DNA of 64,000 bases, from NCBI GenBank assembly GCA_009840005.1, contig VXOR01000033.1:3134-67133 (forward strand), in the 5' to 3' direction. Positions 37,559-50,559 of the stretch are shown here, one piece after another (positions within the stretch are counted from its first letter, which is position 1; each line of letters opens with the position of its first letter). Below the pieces are notes generated by a model, which made no database searches, was not told the DNA's origin, and worked only from the letters and a program-made list of their open reading frames with translations. Source of the stretch: Gemmatimonadota bacterium (GTDB lineage Bacteria; Latescibacterota; UBA2968; UBA8231). Position numbers and translations under genes: made by a program.

Positions 37559-37618
37559 CCTCCTCAAAACGAAAAATTGAAACCCAGCGTCGGCACGATG
37601 GGCAATTGCTTGATCACC
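37559..37618 (-). repeat. TonB receptor 3' end (copy D2, inside the receptor)
   Basis: The original of the 60-base duplication: VIKQLPIVPTLGFNFSF, stop and the following GAGGAGG. Five mismatches separate it from D1. Confidence 0.9.
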
Positions 37619-39804
37619 TCTGGCTCGGTCTCGGGATTGTTCGTGTTGAACTGCACGAACCACTCGTTGCGCCGACTGTAGATATTGAAAATTTGCAAGT
37701 AGAACTCGACATCGGTACCCCACAGCCCAAACTCGCGGCTGGCACTGGCATCGAGGCGGTGATAGGGCAGCAGACGGGCGCTGTTGCGGTTGGCTGGTAG
37801 TACGTAATCTTCTACCTCCCCAGTGGTTGGCTGACGCAGCGAATAGCGGGCCGAGGCCGGGGTGAATGCCTGTCCAGTGGCGTACACTAAGTTTGAGCCT
37901 AAGCGCCATTTTCCCAAGTTGTAAGAGAGTACGAAAGACAGATCGTGGCGGCGGTCGTACTTGGGAGGGAAGGCGAGTCCACGGTTTAGTTCGGAGAAGG
38001 TACGCCGCGTCCAGCCTAGGGTGTAGCCCACCCAGCCGGTGAGCGCACCCGTGCGCCGCTGCAAAAAGACTTCGACCCCGCTGGCCCAGCCGCTACCCCC
38101 GCTTTTGAATATGTCCTCCGAGCGCGTGCTTTCGCTATCAACGGCCACTGCGTTATCTAGCACCACCAGATTGGCCAAATCGGTGTAGTATGCCTCTACT
38201 GAGAGTTGGTAGCGCCGCGAGGGGTTCCACTCGGTTCCTACGACTCCTTGATACGAGCGGCCCGGCTCGACGCTGCTGTCCAGCGGCACCCAGAAATCGC
38301 CGCCGCTGAAGGCTTCGGAGGTGATCAATTGTAGGTACTGGCGGTACATCCCGGCGGCGGCCTTGACGCGGATGTTTTCGCTGAGGGCGCGGCTGAGGGA
38401 CAGCCTCGGCGCAAAGTGCAGGCGATCCCCGACGCTGAAATAAGTGCCTCGTCCCCCGAGCCGCAGCCGCGTGGTGGGCCCGGCTTGCCACTCGTCTTGG
38501 ATGTAGGCCGAGGCCAACACCGACTTCTGGTACAAGGTCTCTTCCTCCCGATTGAAGGATTGGGAATAGTCGAACTCGAACAGGGTGGCCAGAAAGCCGA
38601 GGGTGAGGGTGTGATTGCGGTTGGCGAAGTAATCCACATCGCCTTTGAGCGACCAATCGCGGATGCTGTTGGCAATGCCGAACTCCGTGCCGAAGAAGCT
38701 GAACAAGAGGATGCTTTCGTACGCCGAGCCGGCGGCCATGAAGTGGCCGAACAGGGTCGGCGAAAACACTCGCGTCCAGCGCGCGGTCACGGCGCGGTTG
38801 CCCCAGCGCAAATCGGCGAAGGATTCATCCTCATCTTCTGCATCTACTCGCAGATCGTCTTGGCCCCAGTACGTACTCACGGTAAAGGTGTCGTCGCCCC
38901 ACCGCTGGTTGACTTTGCCGTTGAAGTCGTAGAAGTAATAGTTCAAGGGGATGTCTATATCGAAAGAGCGGACGGCGCTGAGCACGGGTTCTAAGTAGGT
39001 GCGGCGGCCGGCCATCATCCACGAGCCTTGGCCCACCGGCCCTTCGGCCAGCAAGCGACTCGCGATTAAGCTGATGCCGCCCCGACCGCTGAAGCGCTGT
39101 CGGTTGCCCTCGCGGTTGCTCACGTCGAGTACCGCCCCGAGCGTGCGGCCATACGCCGCCGGGTAGGCCCCTTTGTAGAGTTGGACGTCCTTGATGGCGT
39201 CGGGATTGAAGGTCGAGAAGAAGCCGAAAAGGTGCGAGGGATTGTACAGGGGGATGTGGTCGAGGAGGATGGCCGTTTGGTCGGGGCCGCCGCCGCGCAC
39301 GTACAGGCCGCTGCTGATATCGGACGCCGACTGGATGCCCGGCAGCAGTTGCAAGCTGCGGAGGAGGTCGGCTTCGCCAACGGCCGGCATTCGCTGCAAC
39401 GGCTCGACCTGCAGGGCGATAAAACTGCTCTGGGTGGCCTGCTCCAGCTCTTCGCTGCGCTCGGCTTGGATCACAATTTCCTCTAGGTCCACCGACTCGA
39501 CCTGCAAGGCCACATCCAAGCGCACGTCTTGGTCGCTGAACGCTAGCGTATCGCGCCAGCTTTTGTAGCCTATATACGAAATCACCACCTCGTACGTCCC
39601 TGCTGGGACCTCTTTGACGGCGTAGTAGCCGCTGCTATTGCTCGCCGCGCCCAACTGTACCTGCGTTAGGACAATGGAGGCCAGCGGCAGAGATTCGCCA
39701 TTGTCGGCGTCGGTGACAAAACCGCTCAAAGTGGCTCCTGGGGTCTGGGCCGCCACGGGCATAGCCACCAAGAGAGCCACCATCCAATACCTAATAATTG
39801 CCAT
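37564..39804 (-). CDS. TonB-dependent outer-membrane receptor with carboxypeptidase-regulatory-like domain
   Basis: 746 residues, start after GGAGAAAGA. Signal peptide (MAIIRYWMVALLVAMPVAAQ), then a CarboxypepD_reg-like domain (GFVTDADNGESLPLASIVL; SSGYYAVKEVPAGTYEVVIS), a TonB plug (LLRSLQLLPGIQSASDISSG, LYVRGGGPDQTAILLDHIPL) and a 22-strand barrel ending in the aromatic C-terminus GFNFSF. It imports a large or scarce substrate across the outer membrane. It is a paralogue of 48394-50559. The 52-base gap after the CFA gene and the downstream DUF4249 lipoprotein suggest one long minus-strand transcript. Confidence 0.92.
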   Translation of the reverse strand: MAIIRYWMVALLVAMPVAAQTPGATLSGFVTDADNGESLPLASIVLTQVQLGAASNSSGYYAVKEVPAGTYEVVISYIGYKSWRDTLAFSDQDVRLDVALQVESVDLEEIVIQAERSEELEQATQSSFIALQVEPLQRMPAVGEADLLRSLQLLPGIQSASDISSGLYVRGGGPDQTAILLDHIPLYNPSHLFGFFSTFNPDAIKDVQLYKGAYPAAYGRTLGAVLDVSNREGNRQRFSGRGGISLIASRLLAEGPVGQGSWMMAGRRTYLEPVLSAVRSFDIDIPLNYYFYDFNGKVNQRWGDDTFTVSTYWGQDDLRVDAEDEDESFADLRWGNRAVTARWTRVFSPTLFGHFMAAGSAYESILLFSFFGTEFGIANSIRDWSLKGDVDYFANRNHTLTLGFLATLFEFDYSQSFNREEETLYQKSVLASAYIQDEWQAGPTTRLRLGGRGTYFSVGDRLHFAPRLSLSRALSENIRVKAAAGMYRQYLQLITSEAFSGGDFWVPLDSSVEPGRSYQGVVGTEWNPSRRYQLSVEAYYTDLANLVVLDNAVAVDSESTRSEDIFKSGGSGWASGVEVFLQRRTGALTGWVGYTLGWTRRTFSELNRGLAFPPKYDRRHDLSFVLSYNLGKWRLGSNLVYATGQAFTPASARYSLRQPTTGEVEDYVLPANRNSARLLPYHRLDASASREFGLWGTDVEFYLQIFNIYSRRNEWFVQFNTNNPETEPEVIKQLPIVPTLGFNFSF

Positions 39805-39856: not shown

Positions 39857-40903
39857 CTAAACCTGCCCTACCGTTACTCTCCGCTTAAAACGATAGTGCG
39901 ACACCCACCACTCCTGCCCGCCATTGTAGCCCCACAATTCGGCGCAGGTCATAAAGAAAATACGCCAGCGCTGTAACCATCGCCGCTTTGCGGCTGCTCC
40001 GTACTGGTGTTCCAAAATGGCGAGGGCCTCCGAGCGCCGGGCGTCGAGATTGGCCAGCCAATGCTCGGCCGTGCGGGCGTAGTGTCGGCCATTGACTCGC
40101 CATTGCGCCTCTAGGACTAGATTCTCCTGGAAGTAGTGCAGCAAATCGTCGGAGGGCATGATGCCGCCGGTAAAAAAGTAACGCCCCATCCAGTTTTCTT
40201 CACCTTCCGCGGCAAAGGTGTATGCGTAGAGGCGATGGACGAAGATGTGGATGAATAGCGAGCCAGCCGGTTTGAGCCAGCCGGCGATGCGCCGCATTAA
40301 TTCGCGGTAATTGCGCATGTGCTCGAACATCTCCACCGATACCACCCGGTCGTAGCGTCCCGGTGCCGCGAATTGGTTCATGTCCGAGGTGATCACCTCG
40401 ACGTTGTCTAGCTCCAAGGCATTGCAGCGCTCTTCGATAAAGTTGCGCTGCAAGGTTGAATTGGACACGGCGGTGATGCGGCTGCCGGGATAATGTTGCG
40501 CCATCCACAAGGTCAGCGACCCCCAGCCGCAACCCAATTCCAGCACGTCTTGGCCGTCTTGTAGGTCGGCGCGCTGACAGGTTAGTTTTAGCATGGCCGC
40601 TTCGGCTTGGTCTAGGCTGGCCGTATTTTCGGGGAAATAACAGCCGCTGTACTTAAGATGGCGGCCCAGAACCAGTTGGAAAAAATCGGGCGGCAGTTCG
40701 TAGTGCTGCTCGTTGGCGCTCTGCGTATGTAGGGCGATGGGTGCCTGATTCATTGAGGCGATGAAGCGGCATTTGGCCGCTTGCTCGGCCTCGCAGTCGG
40801 TGCCTCGCTCTTGCCGCAGGCGCCCGCGATTGAGGCGGCGGATGCCCCAGCGGATCAGGGCATCGGGCAACAGGCCCCGCTCGGCCCAATCAATCGCGTT
40901 CAA
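39857..40903 (-). CDS. Cyclopropane-fatty-acyl-phospholipid synthase family methyltransferase (second copy)
   Basis: 348 residues, TTG start inside the 3' end of the DUF1295 gene (14-base overlap). SAM motif [20 protein letters not shown], then [40 protein letters not shown] and [16 protein letters not shown]. Domain order is that of CFA-type SAM methyltransferases, but the N-terminal lipid-binding domain is short. Such proteins transfer a methyl to acyl chains (10-methyl, methylated or furan fatty acids). It ends the lipid operon. Confidence 0.85.
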
Positions 40904-41687
40904 GGTTTTCTCTGCGGGGAATCCACGGAATAAAGGGACTGGTGGTGCGCTGATAGCGGCGGTAGGACTCGCCGCGGCTGACCAGTGCTCGCTTTTCAGT
41001 GTAGGGAATGCCGGTCACGCGGTACAGCAGAAACAACATCAGCGCCGGGCCGACCCAGGCCAACCATCCATTCGCCGACCCGACCGCCATGACTACATAG
41101 GCCCACCAGTGAATCCATTCAAAAAAATAGTTGGGATGGCGCGAATAGCGCCACAGGCCGCGATCGCAGGTGCGCCCTTGGTTAGCAGCTTGGCGGCGGA
41201 AGGAGGCCAGTTGGCGGTCGGCTATCCATTCGCCGACCACGGCCACTACCCACACCAGCAGACCGGCGACATCCCAAGCGGTCCAGCCCACGTGAGCTTT
41301 GGCCGCCACGGCGACAAAAGGCAGACCGAATAAAACCACCAGCAGGGCCTGCGCTTGGAATAAATAGAAAAAGCGGCGCTGGGCCTGGGCACCCCATTGG
41401 GCACGCAGCATTTGGTAGCGGCCGTCCTCTTCTCTGGCTCTTACTAGCCGATCAATCACTAGGTAAGCGGTCAGGCGGAAGGACCACGCCGCGCCCATCA
41501 GACCGAGCAACAGCCGCCTCGGCTCCCAGCCGTCGCCGCTGTAGGCTGCGACCACGGCCACCAGCCCAATGCCACCGGCCCAGCCCACGTCAACGACGCC
41601 GGCGTCGCCCCGACGCCGTTGCAGCCAATACAGCGCGGCCATACCGACCATGGCCACCGGCAAACTATAGGCTAACAAGTTTAACAT
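40890..41687 (-). CDS. DUF1295 membrane protein (steroid 5-alpha-reductase/ICMT-like)
   Basis: 265 residues with six or seven membrane segments (e.g. [30 protein letters not shown]-type stretches). The C-terminal signature [20 protein letters not shown] and [14 protein letters not shown] is that of DUF1295 and of the ICMT/steroid-reductase fold, which binds NADPH or SAM near the membrane. It is part of the CFA/DUF1365/FAD operon, between the two methyltransferases, and probably reduces or modifies an acyl chain. Confidence 0.88.
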
Positions 41688-41859: not shown

Positions 41860-43146
41860 TTAAACCTCGCCGTGACCAATCTCGGGCAACTGCGCCGAGC
41901 GCCGGTTGGCCGGACGGGCTAAGAGCATTTGCACATCGGATATGTAGCACTCTTCAAAGCCGCCGATGCAGTAAGCAAAATAGAAGTCCCACATGCGGAT
42001 GAATTCCTCGGTAAAGCCTAGCTGACGCACTTGTTCCTCTGCGTCCCAAAAACGCGCCCGCCAAGCCCGCAAGGTGCGAGCGTAGTGGGGGCCAATATCC
42101 TCCAAATGCACCAAGCGCATATCCGTGGCCGCTGCCAGCGAGCGGCTGATGGTCGCCACCGACGGAATGCAACTGCCCGGAAAGATGTATGCCTTGATGA
42201 AATCGACCGAGCGGAGCGCCCGCTCGTAGGCCCAATCGCCGATGACGATGGCCTGCAATAGCATCAGTCCCTCGGGTTTGAGCAGGCGGGCGCAGCAGCC
42301 GAAATAGGTGTCGAAGTAGTGGTGTCCCACGGCTTCGATCATCTCTATGGAGACCAGTTTGTCGTACTGTCCCTGTAGATCGCGGTAGTCGGCCAACACT
42401 ACCTCCACCCGGCCATCTAAGCCGGCTGCGCGCACTCGTTGACGAGCCAGTTCGCACTGTTGCTGCGAAATGGTTGCCGTGGTCACTCGGCAGCCGTACT
42501 TGCGGGCCGCGTGCAAGGCGAAACCGCCCCACCCGGTACCAATTTCCAACAGGTGGTCCTCGGGCACTAGGGCGAGCTTTTTGCAGATGCGATCCACCTT
42601 GTAGCGAGAGGCCTCTTCCAGCGAACTGTCCGGGTGCGGGAATACGGCGCTGGAATACATCATGTTGTCGTCGAGAAAGAGGCGGAAAAAGTCGTTGCTC
42701 AAATCGTAGTGGGCGGCGATGTTGCGCCGGCTGCCCCGGAGCGTATTGCGTTTGAGGGCGTGTCCCAACATGCGGGCTGGCGCGGCCAACCGGGCCCAGC
42801 CCCGCTCGCGCTGCTGCATCCACTCCATATTGGCCACTGCCAAGCGGCACATAGCCGGCAGGTCGTCGCAACTCCACCACCCCTGCATGTAGGCTTCGGC
42901 CGCGCCGATGGTGCCCCCGAGGGCCAAGGCGCGGAAAAACCGAGGATGGTGGACCTGCAAAACCACTTCGGGACCGTCTGCGCCCTGCCCAAAGGTGCGG
43001 CGCTGTTCACCTTCGACTAGGCAAATCGTCCCGCGTTGCAAGCGCTGCAATTGCCCCAACACCAGCCGCCGCGCCCAGCGATCCAGCCAGCCGCCGAGGC
43101 CGATGGGCCGTTTTTTAACTGCGCGGGAGAGAGCTAGTTGCGACAT
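41860..43146 (-). CDS. cfa: Cyclopropane-fatty-acyl-phospholipid synthase
   Basis: 428 residues. N-terminal lipid-interaction domain (WLDRWARRLVLGQLQRLQRG; VHHPRFFRALALGGTIGAAE), then the core: NIAAHYDLSNDFFRLFLDDN, MYSSAVFPHPDSSLEEA, LLEIGTGWGGFALHAARKYG (SAM), SIEMIEAVGHHYFDTYF and YIFPGSCIPS. CFA synthases methylate the cis double bond of membrane phospholipid acyl chains. The position of the E. coli active-site Cys (YSC) is Ser here, as in some homologues. It overlaps DUF1365 by 32 bases. Confidence 0.92.
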   Translation of the reverse strand: MSQLALSRAVKKRPIGLGGWLDRWARRLVLGQLQRLQRGTICLVEGEQRRTFGQGADGPEVVLQVHHPRFFRALALGGTIGAAEAYMQGWWSCDDLPAMCRLAVANMEWMQQRERGWARLAAPARMLGHALKRNTLRGSRRNIAAHYDLSNDFFRLFLDDNMMYSSAVFPHPDSSLEEASRYKVDRICKKLALVPEDHLLEIGTGWGGFALHAARKYGCRVTTATISQQQCELARQRVRAAGLDGRVEVVLADYRDLQGQYDKLVSIEMIEAVGHHYFDTYFGCCARLLKPEGLMLLQAIVIGDWAYERALRSVDFIKAYIFPGSCIPSVATISRSLAAATDMRLVHLEDIGPHYARTLRAWRARFWDAEEQVRQLGFTEEFIRMWDFYFAYCIGGFEECYISDVQMLLARPANRRSAQLPEIGHGEV

Positions 43147-43918: not shown

Positions 43919-44003
43919 ATAGCAATCTCGTCTTATTTCTACTCTTCTGCGTCCATCTGCGTCCATCTGCGGATTATCGTATGAAAGATGTAGGATTGCT
44001 ATA
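43918..44003. repeat. Inverted-repeat element B2
   Basis: Begins TATAGCAATC and ends GATTGCTATA, a perfect 10 bp inverted pair. Inside are two TGCGTCCATC units, the family's GGACGCAGA sequence read in reverse. It fills the space between FAD oxidoreductase and DUF1365 genes and starts at the DUF1365 ATG. Confidence 0.88.
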
Positions 44004-45261
44004 GCGTCTTGCCAAAGCGCCGCGTCACTTCCAAGGCGCTGACCACCCCGTCCTCGTGAAAACCAAAGCCCCAATAGGCCCCACAGTAGTGGATGCGATC
44101 GACCCCGTCGATACGCGACCGCTGCTTTTGCGCGGCTACTGAGGCCGGCGAATAGACTGGATGGTGATAGGTCATGCGGGCGATGATTCGCTCTGGAGCA
44201 ATGTCGGAGGTGCGATTGAGGCTGACGCAGAAAGGTCGGCGGCTCTCCAGACTTTGGAGGATATTCATGTTGTAGGTGACGGTAGCGGGGCATCCCTTGT
44301 CGGGCGGGATGTAGTAATTCCAGCTAGCCCAAGCGCGCTGGCGCTCGGGCAGCACGGACGCGTCGGTGTGCAATGCGACATCGTTGGCCTGATATCGCAT
44401 GGATCCTAGAATTTGGTGCTCGGCTGGGGTAGGATCGGCCAATAGCCGCAGTGCTTGGTCGCTGTGTACGGCGAGGATGACCTCGTCGAAGCGCTCGGAC
44501 TCTCCGGCCTGGGTGCACACTTCCACTCCTTGGGCCAAACGCCGCACGGAAGCCACGGGGCAATTGACGCGGATGCGATCTCTAAAGGGACGAATCAGCG
44601 CCTCGACGTAGCGCTGCGAGCCTCCTTTGATGACGCGCCAAGGCGTCCGCCCGCGCACTTGTAAAAAAGCGTGATTGGCGAAAAACTGGACGAAATAGTG
44701 CGCTGGGAACTCGTACATGCGGTCGGGCAAGGCCGACCACAGCGCCGACCCCAAGGGGATGATATGGTGTTGGACAAAAGCCTTGGAATAGCCGTTGTCG
44801 GCTAGATAGTCTCCGAGGGTAGTAGCGTCATTGGGATCGCGCAATAACTCCGGTGCTGTGCGGTTGAAGCGCAAGATGTCGGCCAACATGCGGTAGAACG
44901 ACGGCCGCAGCGCATTGCGTCGTTGGGCCAACAGACTGCTCAGCGGCGTGCTGGCGTATTCGAGGCCGGTGTGGCCGCACTTGACGCTGAACCCCATTTG
45001 AGTCGGCTGAGAAGCTACTTCCAAATGCTGCAATAGGCGATTGAATTGCGGGTAGTTGGGTTCGTTGAAGACGATAAAGCCGGTATCCACCGCATAGGAG
45101 CGCCCTTCCTGCTCGACTTCCAAGGTATGGGTATGCCCGCCGATATAATCGTTGGCTTCAAACAGCGTGACGTGGTGAGCTGGGTGCAGCAGATAAGCCG
45201 ATACCAAGCCGGAAATACCGCCTCCCACCACGGCGATGCGCCGCCCCTGTGCCGGCTTCAT
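43999..45261 (-). CDS. FAD-dependent oxidoreductase (NAD(P)-binding amine-oxidase-like)
   Basis: 420 residues, start MKPAQGRRIAVVGGGISGLV at 45261. FAD motif VVGGGISGLVSAYLLHPAHH, ANDYIGGHTHTLEVEQEGRS, VIKGGSQRYVEALIRPFRDR and the C-terminal IHYCGAYWGFGFHEDGVVSA. Related proteins act on acyl chains with CFA-type methyltransferases, for example in 10-methylstearate and furan fatty acid synthesis. It overlaps the desaturase stop by four bases, so the two are coupled. Confidence 0.9.
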   Translation of the reverse strand: MKPAQGRRIAVVGGGISGLVSAYLLHPAHHVTLFEANDYIGGHTHTLEVEQEGRSYAVDTGFIVFNEPNYPQFNRLLQHLEVASQPTQMGFSVKCGHTGLEYASTPLSSLLAQRRNALRPSFYRMLADILRFNRTAPELLRDPNDATTLGDYLADNGYSKAFVQHHIIPLGSALWSALPDRMYEFPAHYFVQFFANHAFLQVRGRTPWRVIKGGSQRYVEALIRPFRDRIRVNCPVASVRRLAQGVEVCTQAGESERFDEVILAVHSDQALRLLADPTPAEHQILGSMRYQANDVALHTDASVLPERQRAWASWNYYIPPDKGCPATVTYNMNILQSLESRRPFCVSLNRTSDIAPERIIARMTYHHPVYSPASVAAQKQRSRIDGVDRIHYCGAYWGFGFHEDGVVSALEVTRRFGKTL

Positions 45262-46223
45262 GGCCCGCTGACGGCTCGGTCGTAAACCCGCTCGGGCACG
45301 GGCCTGAGGTCGCGCACCAGACCGATCCAAGACAGCACTTTGAGCAGGTAATAGGTCGGATCGAACTCCCACCAGTAAAACCCCTGCCGCGCCGCCCCTG
45401 GATAGTAGTGGTGATTGTTGTGCCAGCCTTCGCCCATAGTGATGAGCGCTAGCCAAAAATTATTACGGCTATGGTCTTGGGTGGCAAAGCGGCGGCGACC
45501 AAAAAGATGGGAAAGCGAGTTGATGGTACAGGTGCCGTGGAACAGGACGATGGTGGAGATGGAGAAGCCCCACACGAGCATCTGCCAGCCGCTGGTTTCC
45601 AACGCTGGAAAGCGGCTGCCGCAATACTCCCCCAAGGCGTACATCGCCGCTGCTAGCAAGACGGGCACGATGATGTCGAAGCGGTCGAGAAAGCGCAGTT
45701 CGGGGAAACGGGCTAGGTCGCGCACATTGTACAGACGGGTGGGAAAATTAGACCGCGAGGTAATCCACAGGACGTGGCTCCACCAAAAACCGTGCTCCTT
45801 GGGCGAATGCACGTCGCTGGCGGCATCGGAGTGGCGATGGTGGTGGCGGTGGTGCCCGGCCCACCACAACGGCCCGCGCTGCACGGCCGTATTGCCCAAC
45901 ACGGCAAAGAGGAACTGCACGGGCCGCGAGGTCTTGAAGGTGCGGTGCGAAAAGTAGCGGTGGTAAAACCCGGTTATGGCGAACATCCGCACCCAGTAGG
46001 ACGCGACGGCCACGCCCACGGCTACGGGACTCCAGCCGACCCACAAAACCCCGAGGCAACTCAAGTGCAGCGCCGCAAAAGGCAGCAGGCGCACCCAATC
46101 GATCTGCCGCTCGTCTGCGGCGACCGCGGCGACCACGGCTTCATCGCCCTTAAACCAGCGCAGACAAGCCAGCCGCCAACCTTTGAGTGGCCGCGCATTG
46201 CCCACGACGTTTGTATGTTCCAT
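45258..46223 (-). CDS. Membrane fatty acid desaturase (acyl-CoA/delta-9 type)
   Basis: 321 residues from MEHTNVVGNARPLKGWRLAC; the frame extends upstream but through a repeat. The three histidine boxes are HRYFSH, HRHHHRHSD and HNNHHYYPG, expected to bind the di-iron centre, between hydrophobic helices. It introduces a cis double bond in acyl chains, which supplies the substrate that CFA-type methyltransferases act on. First of the lipid genes after carH, coupled to the FAD oxidoreductase. Confidence 0.93.
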   Translation of the reverse strand: MEHTNVVGNARPLKGWRLACLRWFKGDEAVVAAVAADERQIDWVRLLPFAALHLSCLGVLWVGWSPVAVGVAVASYWVRMFAITGFYHRYFSHRTFKTSRPVQFLFAVLGNTAVQRGPLWWAGHHRHHHRHSDAASDVHSPKEHGFWWSHVLWITSRSNFPTRLYNVRDLARFPELRFLDRFDIIVPVLLAAAMYALGEYCGSRFPALETSGWQMLVWGFSISTIVLFHGTCTINSLSHLFGRRRFATQDHSRNNFWLALITMGEGWHNNHHYYPGAARQGFYWWEFDPTYYLLKVLSWIGLVRDLRPVPERVYDRAVSGP

Positions 46224-46255
46224 TCGATTACTAGCGGTCAATTGTTTTATCCTCA

Positions 46256-46350
46256 GTGATGTTACGCCACGCCGCGTCCTCAGTAGTATCGGATCGCGGG
46301 CGGGAATCGGGCCAAAAACCAACCACTGAACACTTGATGTGTAACGTCAG
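46256..46350. mobile_element. Family A-end element with a different core
   Basis: Starts GTGATGTTACGCC and ends TGTGTAACGTCAG. Flanked by ATCCTCAGTG (46249-46258; 46351-46360), so at least a 7 bp target duplication. Its core (GCGGGCGGGAATCGG) has none of the usual hairpin, showing that the same ends can carry other sequence. It lies between carH and the desaturase. Confidence 0.8.
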
Positions 46351-46397: not shown

Positions 46398-47342
46398 CTA
46401 CGAGCGCAAAGCATTCAAGGAATCGCGCAAATTGTTCAGGTCGGTTAGGGTAACGGCCCCGGCCTGATTGAGAAAACGCTGGTAATGCGGGGCGGCCCGT
46501 CCACCGGCTAGCAGGGCCATGTCGCCTCCTATCAGCCGGCGCAATTTGAGCAACTCGCCGCCCAGATGGGGATCGTCGCCCGGATAGATGATGCTGAGGA
46601 GGACGGCCTTGGCACCCTTTTGCGCGGCGGCTCCGGCGATTTCCTCGGCCGGTAGGTTGGGTCCTAGGAAAGTCGAGTTCCAACCCTCTGACGTGGCTAC
46701 GACTGAAGCGAGCAAGGCACCGATCTCGTGCAATTGCCCCGCAGGCGTGGTGGCGACGACGTGGGGAGCAGTCGCCGATACTTGGAAACTGGCGCGTAGG
46801 TTGCCGATAAAGCTGCACACGACGGCCGAAGCCATGTGTTCGTCGGATACTCTCAAGGTGCCTTCCTGCCACATCTGGCCAATGCGCTCCATCAGCGGCT
46901 GTACCACTTCTTCGAGCAGATGCCGCTGGCTCAATGCTATAGAGGCACGGACCAATTGCTCTTCAAGCGAGACCGCGTCTAGCCCTTGCACTGCGACTAA
47001 GGCTTGTGCGAGGAATTCGCCGGGGTCGGCGGTGTCTTTTTTCTCGACCTCTCCATCGGTCGGCCTCTGAGTCAACGGCGCGGCTGCTTGCTCAGCGCGG
47101 ACCAGCTTCATCAGCTCGGGCGTGGAGAGATGGGCGATGCGGCCAATGCTCTGTCCGGCCTGCACCGCCTGCTGCAACCACTGTAGGTGCGCGATGTCTT
47201 CGTCCGAATAAAGCCGTCTATTGGTCGTCGTCCGCTCAGGCACCACGGCTTGATAGCGCTTTTCCCAAACGCGGATGACATGGGCCGAAAGGCCGGTCCG
47301 CCGCACTACTACTTTGATGGGGTGTCCCAGCGTCGGTTCCAT
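46398..47342 (-). CDS. carH: MerR-family B12-binding photoreceptor regulator (CarH/LitR)
   Basis: 314 residues. N-terminal MerR helix-turn-helix (VVVRRTGLSAHVIRVWEKRY; TTTNRRLYSDEDIAHL), then a helical cap and a B12-binding domain. The CarH signature W-x9-EH is exact: Trp158, Glu168, His169 in MWQEGTLRVSDEH. The lower axial ligand is His205 in AGQLHEIGALL, and FLGPNLPAEEI follows. In Thermus CarH, AdoCbl in the dark gives a DNA-binding tetramer; light breaks it. The residue after Trp, His132 in Thermus, is Gln159 here. Its gene is second in an operon with lipid enzymes, and an 11-base-phased operator array precedes the operon. Confidence 0.9.
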   Translation of the reverse strand: MEPTLGHPIKVVVRRTGLSAHVIRVWEKRYQAVVPERTTTNRRLYSDEDIAHLQWLQQAVQAGQSIGRIAHLSTPELMKLVRAEQAAAPLTQRPTDGEVEKKDTADPGEFLAQALVAVQGLDAVSLEEQLVRASIALSQRHLLEEVVQPLMERIGQMWQEGTLRVSDEHMASAVVCSFIGNLRASFQVSATAPHVVATTPAGQLHEIGALLASVVATSEGWNSTFLGPNLPAEEIAGAAAQKGAKAVLLSIIYPGDDPHLGGELLKLRRLIGGDMALLAGGRAAPHYQRFLNQAGAVTLTDLNNLRDSLNALRS

Positions 47343-47436
47343 AACACAGCAAACAAGCGATTTCTGCCCATTTCCACAATCTTCCAAGCAAAGCAGGCCG
47401 CATTTGCTGCGGCCTGCTCCGGCGCAGTTTACGGGC

Positions 47437-47973
47437 CTAGCGAGCTTGCTGCTTGACCGTACCCCAAGTACTGCTCTCGACAGCGGTGGCAGGCGGAGGC
47501 AGGAGCACCGCATCAATGATGTGGATTACGCCATTGCTGGCGGTCACGTCCGCTTGGACGACATTGGCATTGTTGATCATCACGCCGCTGTCGCTGACGC
47601 TGATATCGATCGAGTCGCCACTGAGGGTGGTAGCCGAACTTAGTTCCACTACGTCGGCGGCCATGACCGAACCCGCGACGACGTGATAAAGCAGGATCGC
47701 GGTCAGCAGTTCCTTATTCTCGGGCAACAGCAGCGACTCGACGGTGCCCTCTGGCAAAGCGGCGAATGCCTCGTCCGTGGGGGCAAAGACGGTTAAGGGG
47801 CCTTCGCCTTGGAGCGCATCGACGAGGTCGGCGGCCTGCACCGCGGCGACCAGCGTGTTAAAGGTGCCAGCCCCGATGGCAACATCGACGATATCCTCGT
47901 CTTGGGCTTGGGCTGGGCCTGCCCAAGACGCGAGGGCTAGCGCCATGAGTGTGGCAATACGGGTGAGGTTCAT
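47437..47973 (-). CDS. Fasciclin (FAS1) domain protein, exported
   Basis: 178 residues after AAGGAGGAAATTGC. Signal peptide [20 protein letters not shown], cleavage near AQAQ. One FAS1 domain: [53 protein letters not shown] and [13 protein letters not shown]. Exported FAS1 proteins mediate adhesion or bind lipids. It is the first gene under the phased promoter and may be light-induced with the lipid genes. The spacing to carH is 94 bases. Confidence 0.92.
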
Positions 47974-48019: not shown

Positions 48020-48096
48020 TTGTCTAATTGAGTGTACTTATTTGTCTATTATTTGTCAAGATATTTTCTGAAATTATTTAGACAAAAATTAGACAA
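48020..48096 (-). promoter_or_regulatory. Sigma-70 promoter inside an 11-base-phased operator array
   Basis: On the minus strand TTGACA (48059-48054), a 17-base spacer and TACACT (48036-48031) form the promoter for fasciclin-carH. Heptamers TTGTCTA/TTGTCAA start at 48020, 48042 and 48053 on the plus strand, in an 11-base register with the weaker AGTGTAC at 48031. Two more, inverted, end at 48085 and 48096, again 11 apart. Four subunits binding 11-base direct repeats over the -35 is the known CarH mode. The assignment is inferred. Confidence 0.75.
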
Positions 48097-48136
48097 TCGG
48101 TTAATTCACTATATTATGCAGGGATTATACAGGGGC

Positions 48137-48282
48137 CTTAGTACGTAGTTATACATGGTCATCGGGGTATCAGATGCTTCGACTCCGCTTCGCTCCGCTC
48201 AGCATGACAAGTGGGTGCGCTGCTTCACCGTGTCATGCTGAGCGAAGCGAAGCATCTCATACCACCTCTACTGTCGTCTTAG
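48137..48282. mobile_element. MITE element A6 with exact 9 bp target duplication
   Basis: 146 bp, the same length as A2. Bounded by TACAGGGGC on both sides (48128-48136 and 48283-48291). Ends are of the CTTAGTACG type; core hairpin as in the family (CTTCGCTCCGCTCAGCATGA; TCATGCTGAGCGAAGCGAAG). The rest of 47974-48393 holds the promoter array and a GC-rich stretch with no gene. Confidence 0.9.
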
Positions 48283-48393: not shown

Positions 48394-50559
48394 CTAAAAA
48401 GAGAAGTTGAAGCCCAGCGTGGGGATTATGGGCAATTGTTTGATCTTGCGCGGCTCGACTTCGGGATCGACCGAATCAAGCTGCACAAACCACTCGTTGC
48501 GGCGGCTGTACACATTGAATATCTGCACGTAGAACTCGCTGGCGGCTCCCCGCAGTGCGAACGACCGGCTGGCGCTGACATCGAGGCGGTGATAGGGCTG
48601 TAGGCGGGCGCTGTTGCGCTGGACAGGTGACTCGGAAGCCGGTGTAAATGCTTGCCCGGTGGCATACGCTAGGTTCGCGCCGAGCCGCCATGCGCCCACC
48701 TCGTAGGAGGCGGCAAAAGACAGGTCGTGGCGGCGGTCGTGTTTGGGGGGAAAGGGCTGACCGTCGTTGAGTTCGGGGAAGGTGCGCCGCGTCCAAGCGA
48801 GCGCGTAGCCGATCCACCCGGTGAGTGCGCCGGTGCGCCGCTGTAAAAAGACCTCGACCCCGCTGGCCCAGCCCGTGCCGCCGCTTTTGAACACTGCTTC
48901 TGAGTGCGTGGCCTCGTTGTCGTCGGGCAGTTCGGTATCCACGGTCACTAGGTTGGCGAGGTCCGTGTAATAGGCCTCCACGGAAAACAGGTAGCGCGGC
49001 GAAGGAGACCACTCGATGCCGGTGACGGCCTGATAGGATCGCCCCGGCTCGACGGTGTCGTCCAAAGGAACCCAGAAATCGCCGCCGCTGAAGGCTTCGG
49101 TGGTGATCAGTTGCAGGTGTTGGCGATACACTCCGCCGCCGGCTTTGACGCGGATTTTGTCGCTCAACGCTTGGCTCAGGGACAGCCTCGGCGTGAAGTG
49201 CCAGCGATTTCCTTCGCTGAAGTACGTCCCTCGTCCGCCCAATCGCACTTGTGTGGTCGGCCCGAGCTGCCACTCGTCCTGCACGTAGCCTTCCAACAGC
49301 ACCGGCTCTTGGCGCAAGTCGAGCTGGGTCCGCTCGTTGAAAGACCGGACAAAGTGGAACTCGAACAGGGTGGCCAAGAAGCCCAAAGAAAGTGTGTGAT
49401 GGTGGTTGGCGAAGTAATCCAAGTCGCCTTTGAGCGACAGGTCGCGGATGCTGTTGGCGATGCAGACGGGCGCGTCGAGGAAACGGAGTGCGACAATGCT
49501 TTCGTACGACGAGCCAGCGGCCGTGAAGTGGCCGAACAGGGCCGGTGAAAACGCGCGCGTCCAGCGCGCAGTCAGGGCGCGGTTGCCCCAGCGCATGGCG
49601 ACGAAAGACTCCCGGTCGTCTTCTAGGTCAATCCGCAGGTCGTCTTGTCCCCAGTACGCGGTCGCGGTATAGGTGTCGTCGCCCCGCCGCTGGTTAATGC
49701 CGCCGTTGAGGTCGTAGAAGTAATAGTCCAACGGGATGTCCTCTCCGCGCGTGCGGAGGGCGCTGAACACGCCGTCTAAGTAGGTGCGGCGACCAGCCAA
49801 CATCCACGAGCCTTGGCCGACGGGTCCTTCGGTGAGCAAGCGGCCTGAGATCAGGCTCACGCCGCCGCGCCCGCTAGTCCTCTTATGATTGCCCTCGCGA
49901 TTGCTCACGTCGAGCACTGCCCCGAGCGTGCGGCCGTACGGAGCGGGATAGGCTCCCTTGTACAGATTGACCTCCTTGATGGCGTCTGGGTTGAAGGTCG
50001 AGAAAAGCCCGAACAGGTGGGAGGGATTGTACAGGGGAATATGGTCGAGGAGAATGGCCGTTTGGTCGGGGCCGCCGCCGCGCACGTATAAGCCGCTGCT
50101 GATATCCGCAACCGCTTGGACGCCCGGCAGTAGCTGTAAGCCGCGCAAGAGGTCGGCCTCGCCGAGGGCGGGCAACTGCTGCAACGGCTTGGCGCGGAGG
50201 CTAATGCGATCGGTCTCCACCGAGACCTGCTCGCCTAGGTCCACCGGCTTGGGTACCAGCGTCAAGTCGAGCCGCACGGACTCGTCGGCATCAAAGCGTA
50301 GCGTGTCCCACCGGGTCTGATAGCCTAGATGCGACGTGCTCACCATGTGCGTGCCAGCCGGTACTTGCACGACCGCGTAGTAGCCGCTGGAGTTGCTGAT
50401 CGCCGCGAGCGGAAGTCCCTGCACCGCGACAGTGACGCGGGGCAGGGATTCGCCGCTGTCGGCGTCGGTGACAAAGCCGCTCAGGGTCGCCGCCTGTGCC
50501 GTCCCTGCCGATAGCAGCCACGCCGCTAGCACTCGCTTACAATTTTTTTGCAAACTCAC
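48394..50559 (-). CDS. TonB-dependent outer-membrane receptor, paralogue of 37564-39804
   Basis: 721 residues from a GTG (MSLQKNCKRVLAAWLLSAGT). Signal peptide, CarboxypepD_reg-like domain (GFVTDADSGESLPRVTVAVQ), plug (LLRGLQLLPGVQAVADISSG; LYVRGGGPDQTAILLDHIPL) and barrel ending IPTLGFNFSF. Plug and barrel landmarks match the first receptor closely; the N-terminal domain and loops differ, so the ligands may differ. No lipoprotein partner is directly adjacent. It is the upstream-most gene of the minus-strand block. Confidence 0.92.
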   Translation of the reverse strand: MSLQKNCKRVLAAWLLSAGTAQAATLSGFVTDADSGESLPRVTVAVQGLPLAAISNSSGYYAVVQVPAGTHMVSTSHLGYQTRWDTLRFDADESVRLDLTLVPKPVDLGEQVSVETDRISLRAKPLQQLPALGEADLLRGLQLLPGVQAVADISSGLYVRGGGPDQTAILLDHIPLYNPSHLFGLFSTFNPDAIKEVNLYKGAYPAPYGRTLGAVLDVSNREGNHKRTSGRGGVSLISGRLLTEGPVGQGSWMLAGRRTYLDGVFSALRTRGEDIPLDYYFYDLNGGINQRRGDDTYTATAYWGQDDLRIDLEDDRESFVAMRWGNRALTARWTRAFSPALFGHFTAAGSSYESIVALRFLDAPVCIANSIRDLSLKGDLDYFANHHHTLSLGFLATLFEFHFVRSFNERTQLDLRQEPVLLEGYVQDEWQLGPTTQVRLGGRGTYFSEGNRWHFTPRLSLSQALSDKIRVKAGGGVYRQHLQLITTEAFSGGDFWVPLDDTVEPGRSYQAVTGIEWSPSPRYLFSVEAYYTDLANLVTVDTELPDDNEATHSEAVFKSGGTGWASGVEVFLQRRTGALTGWIGYALAWTRRTFPELNDGQPFPPKHDRRHDLSFAASYEVGAWRLGANLAYATGQAFTPASESPVQRNSARLQPYHRLDVSASRSFALRGAASEFYVQIFNVYSRRNEWFVQLDSVDPEVEPRKIKQLPIIPTLGFNFSF

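What the first reader, a model, noticed from the sequence alone, without database searches (positions are those of the whole stretch)
48020..48096. Eleven-base-phased operator array on the CarH operon promoter
Heptamers start at 48020, 48042 and 48053 (a weaker one at 48031), an exact 11-base register, and cover both -35 (TTGACA) and -10 (TACACT) boxes with an ideal 17-base spacer. Two more, inverted, are again 11 apart just upstream. Thermus CarH is known to bind 11-base direct repeats as a tetramer over the -35. The site is directly upstream of the first gene of the operon that encodes a CarH-like protein. The heptamer TTGTCTA differs from the published Thermus site, so it may define a new CarH half-site class.
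Basis: partly seen in the sequence, partly recalled or inferred. Interest (0 to 1): 0.85.

Follow-up and report, generated by a model that had tools for sequence, protein, structure and literature searches.

The report
CarH light-switch operator on lipid operon
A stretch of regularly spaced DNA repeats in an uncultured Latescibacterota-like bacterium is very probably the landing site of a vitamin-B12 light-sensing repressor that controls its own gene and membrane-lipid genes; the repeat is the known CarH type, but it is laid out in two opposed arrays.

Summary
The array is real. On the promoter (minus) strand it reads TTGACA (-35), TAGACA, a degenerate unit over the -10, and TAGACA, in an 11-bp register; two more TAGACA units, 11 bp apart, point the other way just upstream. 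Shuffles almost never give this. The carH link is strongly supported: 11-bp TWGACA pairs occur in 27 of 45 regions upstream of carH relatives (15 of 29 representatives), and other spacings are rare. In other Latescibacterota such arrays front carH, a lipid operon, fasciclin, RpoS/RpoD-like sigma genes, folE and photolyase; in a Verrucomicrobium, crtI. The 'new half-site class' is wrong: TTGTCTA read on the other strand is TAGACAA, which fits the published CarH repeat TnnACA. What remains new is the layout of two opposed arrays, and the wiring of a CarH-like protein with an intact Wx9EH motif to a putative furan-fatty-acid-type operon. Light and B12 dependence is inferred, not shown; the lower-axial motif deviates (Q for D/E) and the NCBIfam CarH cut-off is not reached.

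The parts
48054..48059 (-). DR1 = -35 box TTGACA, fits TnnACA
   Evidence: sequence; promoter scan; invariant 6 of 6 in the window and 3 relatives
48043..48048 (-). DR2 TAGACA, 11 bp downstream of DR1, inside the -35/-10 spacer
   Evidence: sequence; invariant 6 of 6
48032..48037 (-). dr3, degenerate third unit in the 11-bp register, overlapping the -10
   Evidence: sequence; 4 of 6 invariant
48031..48036 (-). -10 box TACACT, 17-bp spacer from TTGACA; TACATT and TACAAT in L005 and L004
48021..48026 (-). DR4 TAGACA near the expected transcription start; kept in L001 and L005, lost in L004
   Evidence: 2 of 6 invariant
48079..48084 (+). opposed unit 1, TAGACA; 19 bases from DR1, back to back
   Evidence: 6 of 6 invariant
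48090..48095 (+). opposed unit 2, TAGACA; may also be the -35 of a rightward promoter
   Evidence: 6 of 6 invariant
48112..48117 (+). possible rightward -10 TATTAT (16-bp spacer); that spacing is not kept in L004
47437..47973 (-). first gene, fasciclin-domain protein
   Evidence: PF02469 E 5.6e-40
47393..47418 (-). strong hairpin between fasciclin and carH; hairpins at the same place in L001, L004, L005 (T-run behind it in L004): possible leaky terminator or processing site
   Evidence: the terminator scan found none here
46398..47342 (-). CarH-like regulator, 314 aa: MerR helix (RVWEKRY), Wx9EH, QLHEIG
45258..46322 (-). fatty acid desaturase (start uncertain; homology from about 46240)
   Evidence: PF00487; synteny
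43999..45456 (-). FAD amine-oxidase-family protein, UfaD-like by domain only (start uncertain)
   Evidence: PF01593 E 7.2e-27; UfaD description in PMC7380195
43115..44293 (-). DUF1365 protein, UfaO-like by domain (start uncertain)
   Evidence: PF07103 E 2.1e-84; UfaO carries DUF1365
41860..43146 (-). cyclopropane/methyl fatty acid synthase family, UfaM-like by domain only
   Evidence: PF02353 E 1.9e-83
40890..41687 (-). DUF1295 membrane protein, probable operon member
   Evidence: PF06966 E 3.2e-65
39857..40903 (-). second CMAS-family methyltransferase, probable operon member
   Evidence: PF02353 E 3.5e-43

Best explanation
48020-48096 is the operator of a CarH/LitR-family repressor. [quoted passage not shown] light splits AdoCbl, the oligomer falls apart, and fasciclin, carH and the desaturase-FAD oxidase-DUF1365-CFA lipid genes are made. 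So it is an autoregulated light switch on membrane-lipid photoprotection. The opposed pair upstream is a second arm, in helical phase, most likely for a second dimer or tetramer that strengthens repression. Shown: the repeats, their conservation, their association with carH and light-response genes, the promoter match, the protein motifs. Inferred: binding, AdoCbl and light dependence, repression, co-transcription, lipid product, role of the second arm.
For: 11-bp TWGACA pairs in 27 of 45 upstream regions, 37 pairs; the next spacing (31) has 8, all from one gammaproteobacterial clade; 44 downstream control regions have 4 pairs in 3 regions, which are arrays of neighbouring sigma or fasciclin genes. 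One region per group: 15 of 29 at spacing 11, at most 2 of 29 at any other (some representatives are related). In the 6 genomes with the closest carH the pattern has 14 sites, 9 at carH-operon promoters; control pattern 5. Across 64 genomes of the phylum: 44 sites in the 20 genomes with carH (E 1e-30) against 22 in the 44 without (Mann-Whitney p 3e-7; control pattern p 0.70). Arrays front crtI in L009, sigma genes, fasciclin, folE and photolyase. The repeat fits the published CarH consensus. The protein matches Thermus CarH 5c8d, E 3.9e-24, with Wx9EH.
Against: No binding or light data. 18 of 45 upstream regions have no 11-bp TWGACA pair, among them Acidobacteria L006 and L007, which have the same lipid operon. 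In L001 and L002 a TonB-receptor gene, not the lipid genes, follows carH; G002 (= L001) has the lipid genes on another contig that begins inside a second carH end, so its promoter is not seen, and G009 (= L002) has no DUF1365 match. DR4 is lost in L004. The lower-axial motif is QLHEIG, not D/ExHxxG; W is followed by Q, not the His of Thermus CarH. NCBIfam CarH scores 108.8 bits against a cut-off of 400. Eight gammaproteobacterial relatives keep an array though their protein lacks Wx9EH, so the array alone does not prove B12 or light control. A hairpin lies between fasciclin and carH. In the six genomes with the closest carH, the strict pattern was not found at other light-response genes.
Confidence: 0.8

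Rival explanations
1. The opposed pair (48079-48095) is not a second arm for the carH promoter but the operator of a real divergent promoter (TAGACA-16-TATTAT), relic or active, whose transcript runs rightwards, antisense to the TonB receptor gene.
For: Promoter scan finds it with 10 of 12 matches; the conserved block runs to about 48118, covering the -10; in L045 opposed arrays lie between divergent carH and desaturase genes.
Against: No convincing divergent gene: in the window the only listed rightward ORF before the TonB gene's end is one of 82 aa overlapping that gene; in L001, L004 and L005 the TonB homologue lies upstream on the same strand (ORFs there were not listed); in L003 the upstream gene is on the same strand. 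The 16-bp spacing is lost in L004; in L003 and L038 the opposed arm has, read by eye, no clear -10.
Confidence: 0.3
2. The array is read by a CarH-like protein that senses neither B12 nor light, as in the class II LitR of Pseudomonas, perhaps with a partner receptor.
For: Q at the lower-axial D/E position in 33 of 45 proteins, the window's included, and no His after the Trp in the window protein; the gammaproteobacterial relatives have arrays without the motifs; class II LitR regulates a similar gene set.
Against: Wx9EH is intact, as in AdoCbl-binding CarH and unlike CarA; lower-axial His, the x41 and x27 spacings and GG are kept (counted by hand); both B12-binding domains pass Pfam cut-offs.
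Confidence: 0.2
3. A different regulator, or chance recurrence of -35-like hexamers, explains the repeats.
For: TTGACA is also the sigma70 -35; three close genomes share an 11-bp TTGACA/TAGACA pair away from carH; 22 sites exist in genomes without carH.
Against: Spacing 11 stands alone; sites are more frequent in genomes with carH while the control pattern is not; they go with carH and light genes across phyla.
Confidence: 0.05

Closest known systems
Thermus thermophilus and Bacillus megaterium CarH operators (PMC9304148 and PMC8156234, passages seen)
   Same: 11-bp tandem direct repeats nnnnTnnACAn, a unit on the -35 (Thermus), a pseudorepeat in some Bacillus operators; AdoCbl-bound tetramer in the dark
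   Different: Known targets are carotenoid genes; no opposed second array is described in the passages seen; here the target is a lipid operon
Myxococcales CarH/CarA operator at Pcrt (PMC9304148, passages seen)
   Same: Three to five 11-bp units, DR and dr mixed, -35 TTGACA inside a DR; divergent operators in some species
   Different: Carotenoid genes; the inverted repeats there were described for CarA; here two opposed DR pairs on a promoter without a clear divergent gene
Class II LitR (PplR1, PmlR2) regulon of Pseudomonas (PMC9758184, passages seen)
   Same: Light-inducible genes include the regulator, photolyase, UfaM, FolE; an FAD oxidoreductase lies in the cluster
   Different: Thought not to bind B12, LOV partner, site T(G/A)TACA-N12-TGTA(C/T)A instead of 11-bp repeats
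Rhodobacter furan fatty acid genes ufaM, ufaD, ufaO (PMC7380195, passages seen)
   Same: Domain set: SAM methylase, FAD/phytoene-desaturase-like, DUF1365
   Different: More product there when chrR is lost (sigmaE-ChrR control is recalled); pathway activity here is only a domain-level guess

Membership tests
CarH 11-bp direct-repeat operator | Tandem 11-bp repeats with TnnACA | tested here: met
   DR1, DR2, DR4 and both opposed units match; dr3 does not, so no three consecutive units match
CarH 11-bp direct-repeat operator | Overlap with -35 and/or -10 of the target promoter | tested here: met
   DR1 is the -35, dr3 overlaps the -10; no transcript data
CarH 11-bp direct-repeat operator | Conserved in orthologous promoters | tested here: met
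   27 of 45 regions, among them the 5 nearest relatives L001-L005
CarH 11-bp direct-repeat operator | AdoCbl-dependent binding lost in light | not testable with these tools
   needs EMSA or footprint
CarH (AdoCbl photoreceptor-repressor) | MerR DNA-binding domain with RxWE(R/K)RY helix plus two B12-binding subdomains | tested here: met
   PF13411, PF02607, PF02310 above cut-off; RVWEKRY
CarH (AdoCbl photoreceptor-repressor) | Wx9EH motif | tested here: met
   WQEGTLRVSDEH
CarH (AdoCbl photoreceptor-repressor) | D/ExHx2G/P-x41-SxT/V-x22-27-GG | tested here: inconclusive
   QLHEIG-x41-SII-x27-GG: His, spacings and GG kept, Q for D/E and I for T/V (counted by hand)
CarH (AdoCbl photoreceptor-repressor) | NCBIfam CarH equivalog cut-off | tested here: not met
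   NF052513 108.8 bits, cut-off 400
CarH (AdoCbl photoreceptor-repressor) | AdoCbl binding and light-driven oligomer change | not testable with these tools
   needs purified protein
   TAGACA and TTGACA are TnnACA

The most novel reading that the evidence does not exclude
Two opposed CarH arrays set back to back in helical phase (inner gaps of about 9 or 17-20, outer about 28-31 bases) form a bidirectional operator in which two CarH oligomers cooperate on one promoter; and in other Latescibacterota the same operator drives an RpoS/RpoD-like sigma factor, so that one B12 light switch can be wired either straight to lipid repair or through a sigma cascade.
Probability: 0.35. Interest if true: 0.65.

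Novelty: new variant of a known kind. Interest (0 to 1): 0.5.

Why it matters
It gives a checkable light regulon in a phylum with few or no cultured members (recalled, not looked up). It extends CarH-type control from carotenoids to a putative furan-fatty-acid-type lipid operon and, in relatives, to RpoS/RpoD-like sigma genes, photolyase and folE, with a simple DNA signature (TWGACA every 11 bp). It also shows orthologues with the same operon using another site geometry (Acidobacteria, a 12-bp dyad), a natural comparison for how related DNA-binding domains read direct and inverted repeats.

Tried and rejected
New half-site class: rejected on the published consensus. Chance: rejected by shuffles and by cross-genome controls. 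Three consecutive TnnACA units in the six genomes with the closest carH: 0 of 6, but this test is blunt, since the window's own array has no three consecutive matching units either. A photolyase in those genomes: one match, 40% identical, in G002, at E 1e-30; its promoter was not examined. A conserved 11-bp pair before a DegT-like ORF in G001, G002 and G009 (the label is by eye, no family scan): GC-rich spacers, no third unit, left open.

Of the 44 pattern sites in carH-positive genomes, by my reading lie in the promoter regions of carH, sigma, fasciclin, lipid, folE or photolyase/PTPS genes; this includes opposite arms in those intergenic stretches that face an ABC transporter or a PAS-cyclase gene. 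Nine do not; I opened the surroundings of five of those and not of the other four. The 22 sites in carH-negative genomes were not examined.

Rows dropped before counting: L026 (N-terminal match only), L027-L031 (the same contigs as L001-L005), L049-L056 (weak matches). L008, with only 63 bases of region, was kept. A first count used loci of minus-strand matches unturned and is superseded. The 29 representatives were chosen by hand and some are related (WIN, L002 and L003; L036 and L045 from one genus; L035 and L090 from one genome).

Literature: searches are capped listings; I saw in them no paper on CarH in Latescibacterota or on opposed CarH arrays, but only open-licence papers are held and I read passages of four (PMC9304148, PMC8156234, PMC9758184, PMC7380195; a term search in PMC11796333 found nothing). 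The original Thermus, Bacillus and P. putida papers were not seen. That a light-induced ECF sigma exists in Streptomyces rests on a reference title.

Full report
OBSERVATION. Between the fasciclin gene (47437-47973, minus) and a TonB-receptor gene (48394-50559, minus) lies an AT-rich patch, 25% GC, with the array. Read on the promoter strand it is TTGTCTA-N4-TTGTCTA, 19 bases, then TTGACAA, TAGACAA, a degenerate unit, TAGACAA, each 11 bases after the last. TTGACA and TACACT with a 17-base spacer form a promoter match of 10 of 12. Shuffles of the intergenic region never gave two 11-bp TWGACA pairs in 20,000 tries.

WHICH MOTIF. The published repeat is nnnnTnnACAn (PMC9304148) or nAnnTnnACAn (PMC8156234). 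The other strand of TTGTCTA is TAGACAA, and T-AG-ACA fits; so does TTGACA. Three repeats and one pseudorepeat overlapping -35 or -10 is among the arrangements that PMC9304148 reports for Bacillus megaterium CarH. This is an ordinary CarH half-site.

THE REGULATOR. The second gene (46398-47342) has a MerR domain and both B12-binding subdomains and matches Thermus CarH (5c8d, E 3.9e-24). It has Wx9EH, the motif that PMC9304148 uses to tell CarH from CarA. Its lower-axial motif is QLHEIG; 33 of 45 proteins, the window's included, have Q where the known ones have D or E (in 10 of the other 12 my pattern found no such motif or a false one). The residue after the Trp is Q, not the His that is the upper ligand in light-exposed Thermus CarH. 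NCBIfam's CarH model scores 108.8 of the required 400 bits. The family is clear; the photochemistry may be tuned differently.

CONSERVATION. Relatives came from genome contigs (26 loci) and from held genomes. After turning every locus, 45 upstream regions hold 37 TWGACA pairs at spacing 11, in 27 regions; the next spacing, 31, has 8, all from one gammaproteobacterial clade; 44 downstream regions hold 4 pairs, in L038, L041 and L043, where they front sigma or fasciclin genes. One representative per group: spacing 11 in 15 of 29, no other spacing in more than 2. In L001, L004 and L005 compared with the window, DR1, DR2 and both opposed units are invariant at 24 of 24 positions; DR4 at 2 of 6; the non-unit bases of the block at 48 of 74; the 41-base leader at 35 of 41; the 42 bases beyond at 2 of 42. 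So most of the promoter block is conserved, and the contrast between units and spacers is modest.

SPECIFICITY AND REGULON. In the six genomes with the closest carH, TWGACA-N5-TWGACA has 14 sites, 9 at carH-operon promoters; the control pattern has 5. Over 64 genomes of the phylum, 20 with carH hold 44 sites and 44 without hold 22 (Mann-Whitney p 3e-7), while the control pattern does not differ (p 0.70). Where the genes are rearranged, arrays front the desaturase-FAD oxidase lipid genes (L036, L040, L045), fasciclin (L041, L013), a sigma70-family gene with regions 2-4 in seven Latescibacterota genomes (L033, cut by the contig end, L034, L038, L041, L042, L043, L086) and one Planctomycete (L018), folE or fasciclin-folE (L151, L152), photolyase and PTPS (L153), fasciclin away from carH (L154), and crtI in a Verrucomicrobium (L009, TIGR02734 E 1.3e-162). 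The sigma proteins hit NCBIfam RpoS and RpoD models best, below the cut-offs. The Pseudomonas class II LitR regulon has PplR1, PhrB, UfaM, FolE and CryB (PMC9758184). This guilt by association is the best evidence that the array belongs to a light regulator.

THE OPERON. Fasciclin, carH, desaturase, FAD oxidase, DUF1365, CMAS, DUF1295, second CMAS. L005 has the fasciclin-to-CMAS order; L003 and the Acidobacteria L006 and L007 have it from carH on. L001 and L002 do not: a TonB-receptor gene follows carH there. The genome of L001 (G002) has the lipid genes on another contig that starts inside the end of a second carH, the genome of L004 (G004) on a contig whose first 200 bases show no array, and for the genome of L002 (G009) no DUF1365 match was found. 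In Rhodobacter, UfaM (SAM methylase), UfaD (FAD, phytoene-dehydrogenase-like) and UfaO (DUF1365) make furan fatty acids (PMC7380195). The domain set suggests a similar lipid product; this is a guess. Co-transcription is also inferred: a strong hairpin sits between fasciclin and carH in the window and in L001, L004 and L005, with a T-run in L004, and may lower read-through.

THE OPPOSED PAIR. Two readings compete. As a divergent operator: TAGACA-16-TATTAT is a promoter match. As a second arm: there is no convincing divergent gene in the window or L003, and in L001, L004 and L005 the TonB homologue lies on the same strand; the promoter spacing is lost in L004; and back-to-back TGTCWA-TWGACA gaps of 17-20 recur in 7 of 29 representatives, where sliding the strands past each other gives 7 or more, in any window of four gaps, in 12 of 5000 trials. 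The dual pattern TGTCWA-N5-TGTCWA-N6..36-TWGACA-N5-TWGACA occurs at one place each in 5 of 64 phylum genomes, each time beside carH or its operon, control 0. In two of these five (G025, G037) the pair also serves another gene. Gaps near 9, 19 and 30 suggest one face of the helix, but this was seen after looking.

CONTRARY RESULTS. 18 of 45 regions lack the strict pair. L006 and L007, 62-65% identical in CarH and with the same operon, have none; instead TTGACA-N12-TGTCTA is kept in both, the geometry of the PplR1 site. Gammaproteobacterial homologues without Wx9EH keep arrays. So the array marks the DNA-binding domain, not B12 sensing. No experiment here shows light control.

VERDICT. Real, well conserved, and a CarH-type operator; not a new half-site. 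Novel points are the opposed layout and the targets in this phylum.

Noticed in passing
L033, L034, L038, L041, L042, L043, L086, L018: Arrays directly before sigma70-family genes (regions 2-4, RpoS/RpoD-like) near carH: a possible CarH-to-sigma light cascade.
   Followed up: partly
L151, L152, L153, L154: Arrays away from carH before folE, fasciclin-folE, photolyase and PTPS, and fasciclin, some with an opposed array facing an ABC transporter or a PAS-cyclase gene.
   Followed up: partly
L006, L007 upstream of carH: Acidobacterial orthologues of the same operon lack 11-bp repeats but share TAGACA-N15-TTGACA-N12-TGTCTA: a change of operator geometry between orthologues.
   Followed up: partly
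L017, L019-L025: Gammaproteobacterial homologues keep 11-bp arrays though their protein lacks Wx9EH, and no lower-axial His motif was found.
   Followed up: partly
46398-47342 and homologues: Q replaces D/E two residues before the lower-axial His in 33 of 45 proteins.
   Followed up: no
47393-47418: Strong hairpin between fasciclin and carH, also in L001, L004, L005; possible attenuator.
   Followed up: partly
about 48170-48256, and near 612: Inverted repeat upstream of the array (by eye), in a stretch absent from L001 and L004 and different in L005; 20 bases of its arm also occur at 612, so probably an inserted repeat element.
   Followed up: no
L060, L067, L069: A conserved TTGACA-N5-TAGACA pair with GC-rich spacer before a DegT-like ORF (by eye) in three close genomes.
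   Followed up: partly
L083 1-80 (G002:C104): The contig with the lipid genes of G002 begins inside the end of what reads as a second carH copy.
   Followed up: no
37564-39804 and 48394-50559: Two TonB-receptor paralogues flank the operon; a TonB-receptor homologue also follows carH in L001, L002 and several other relatives.
   Followed up: no
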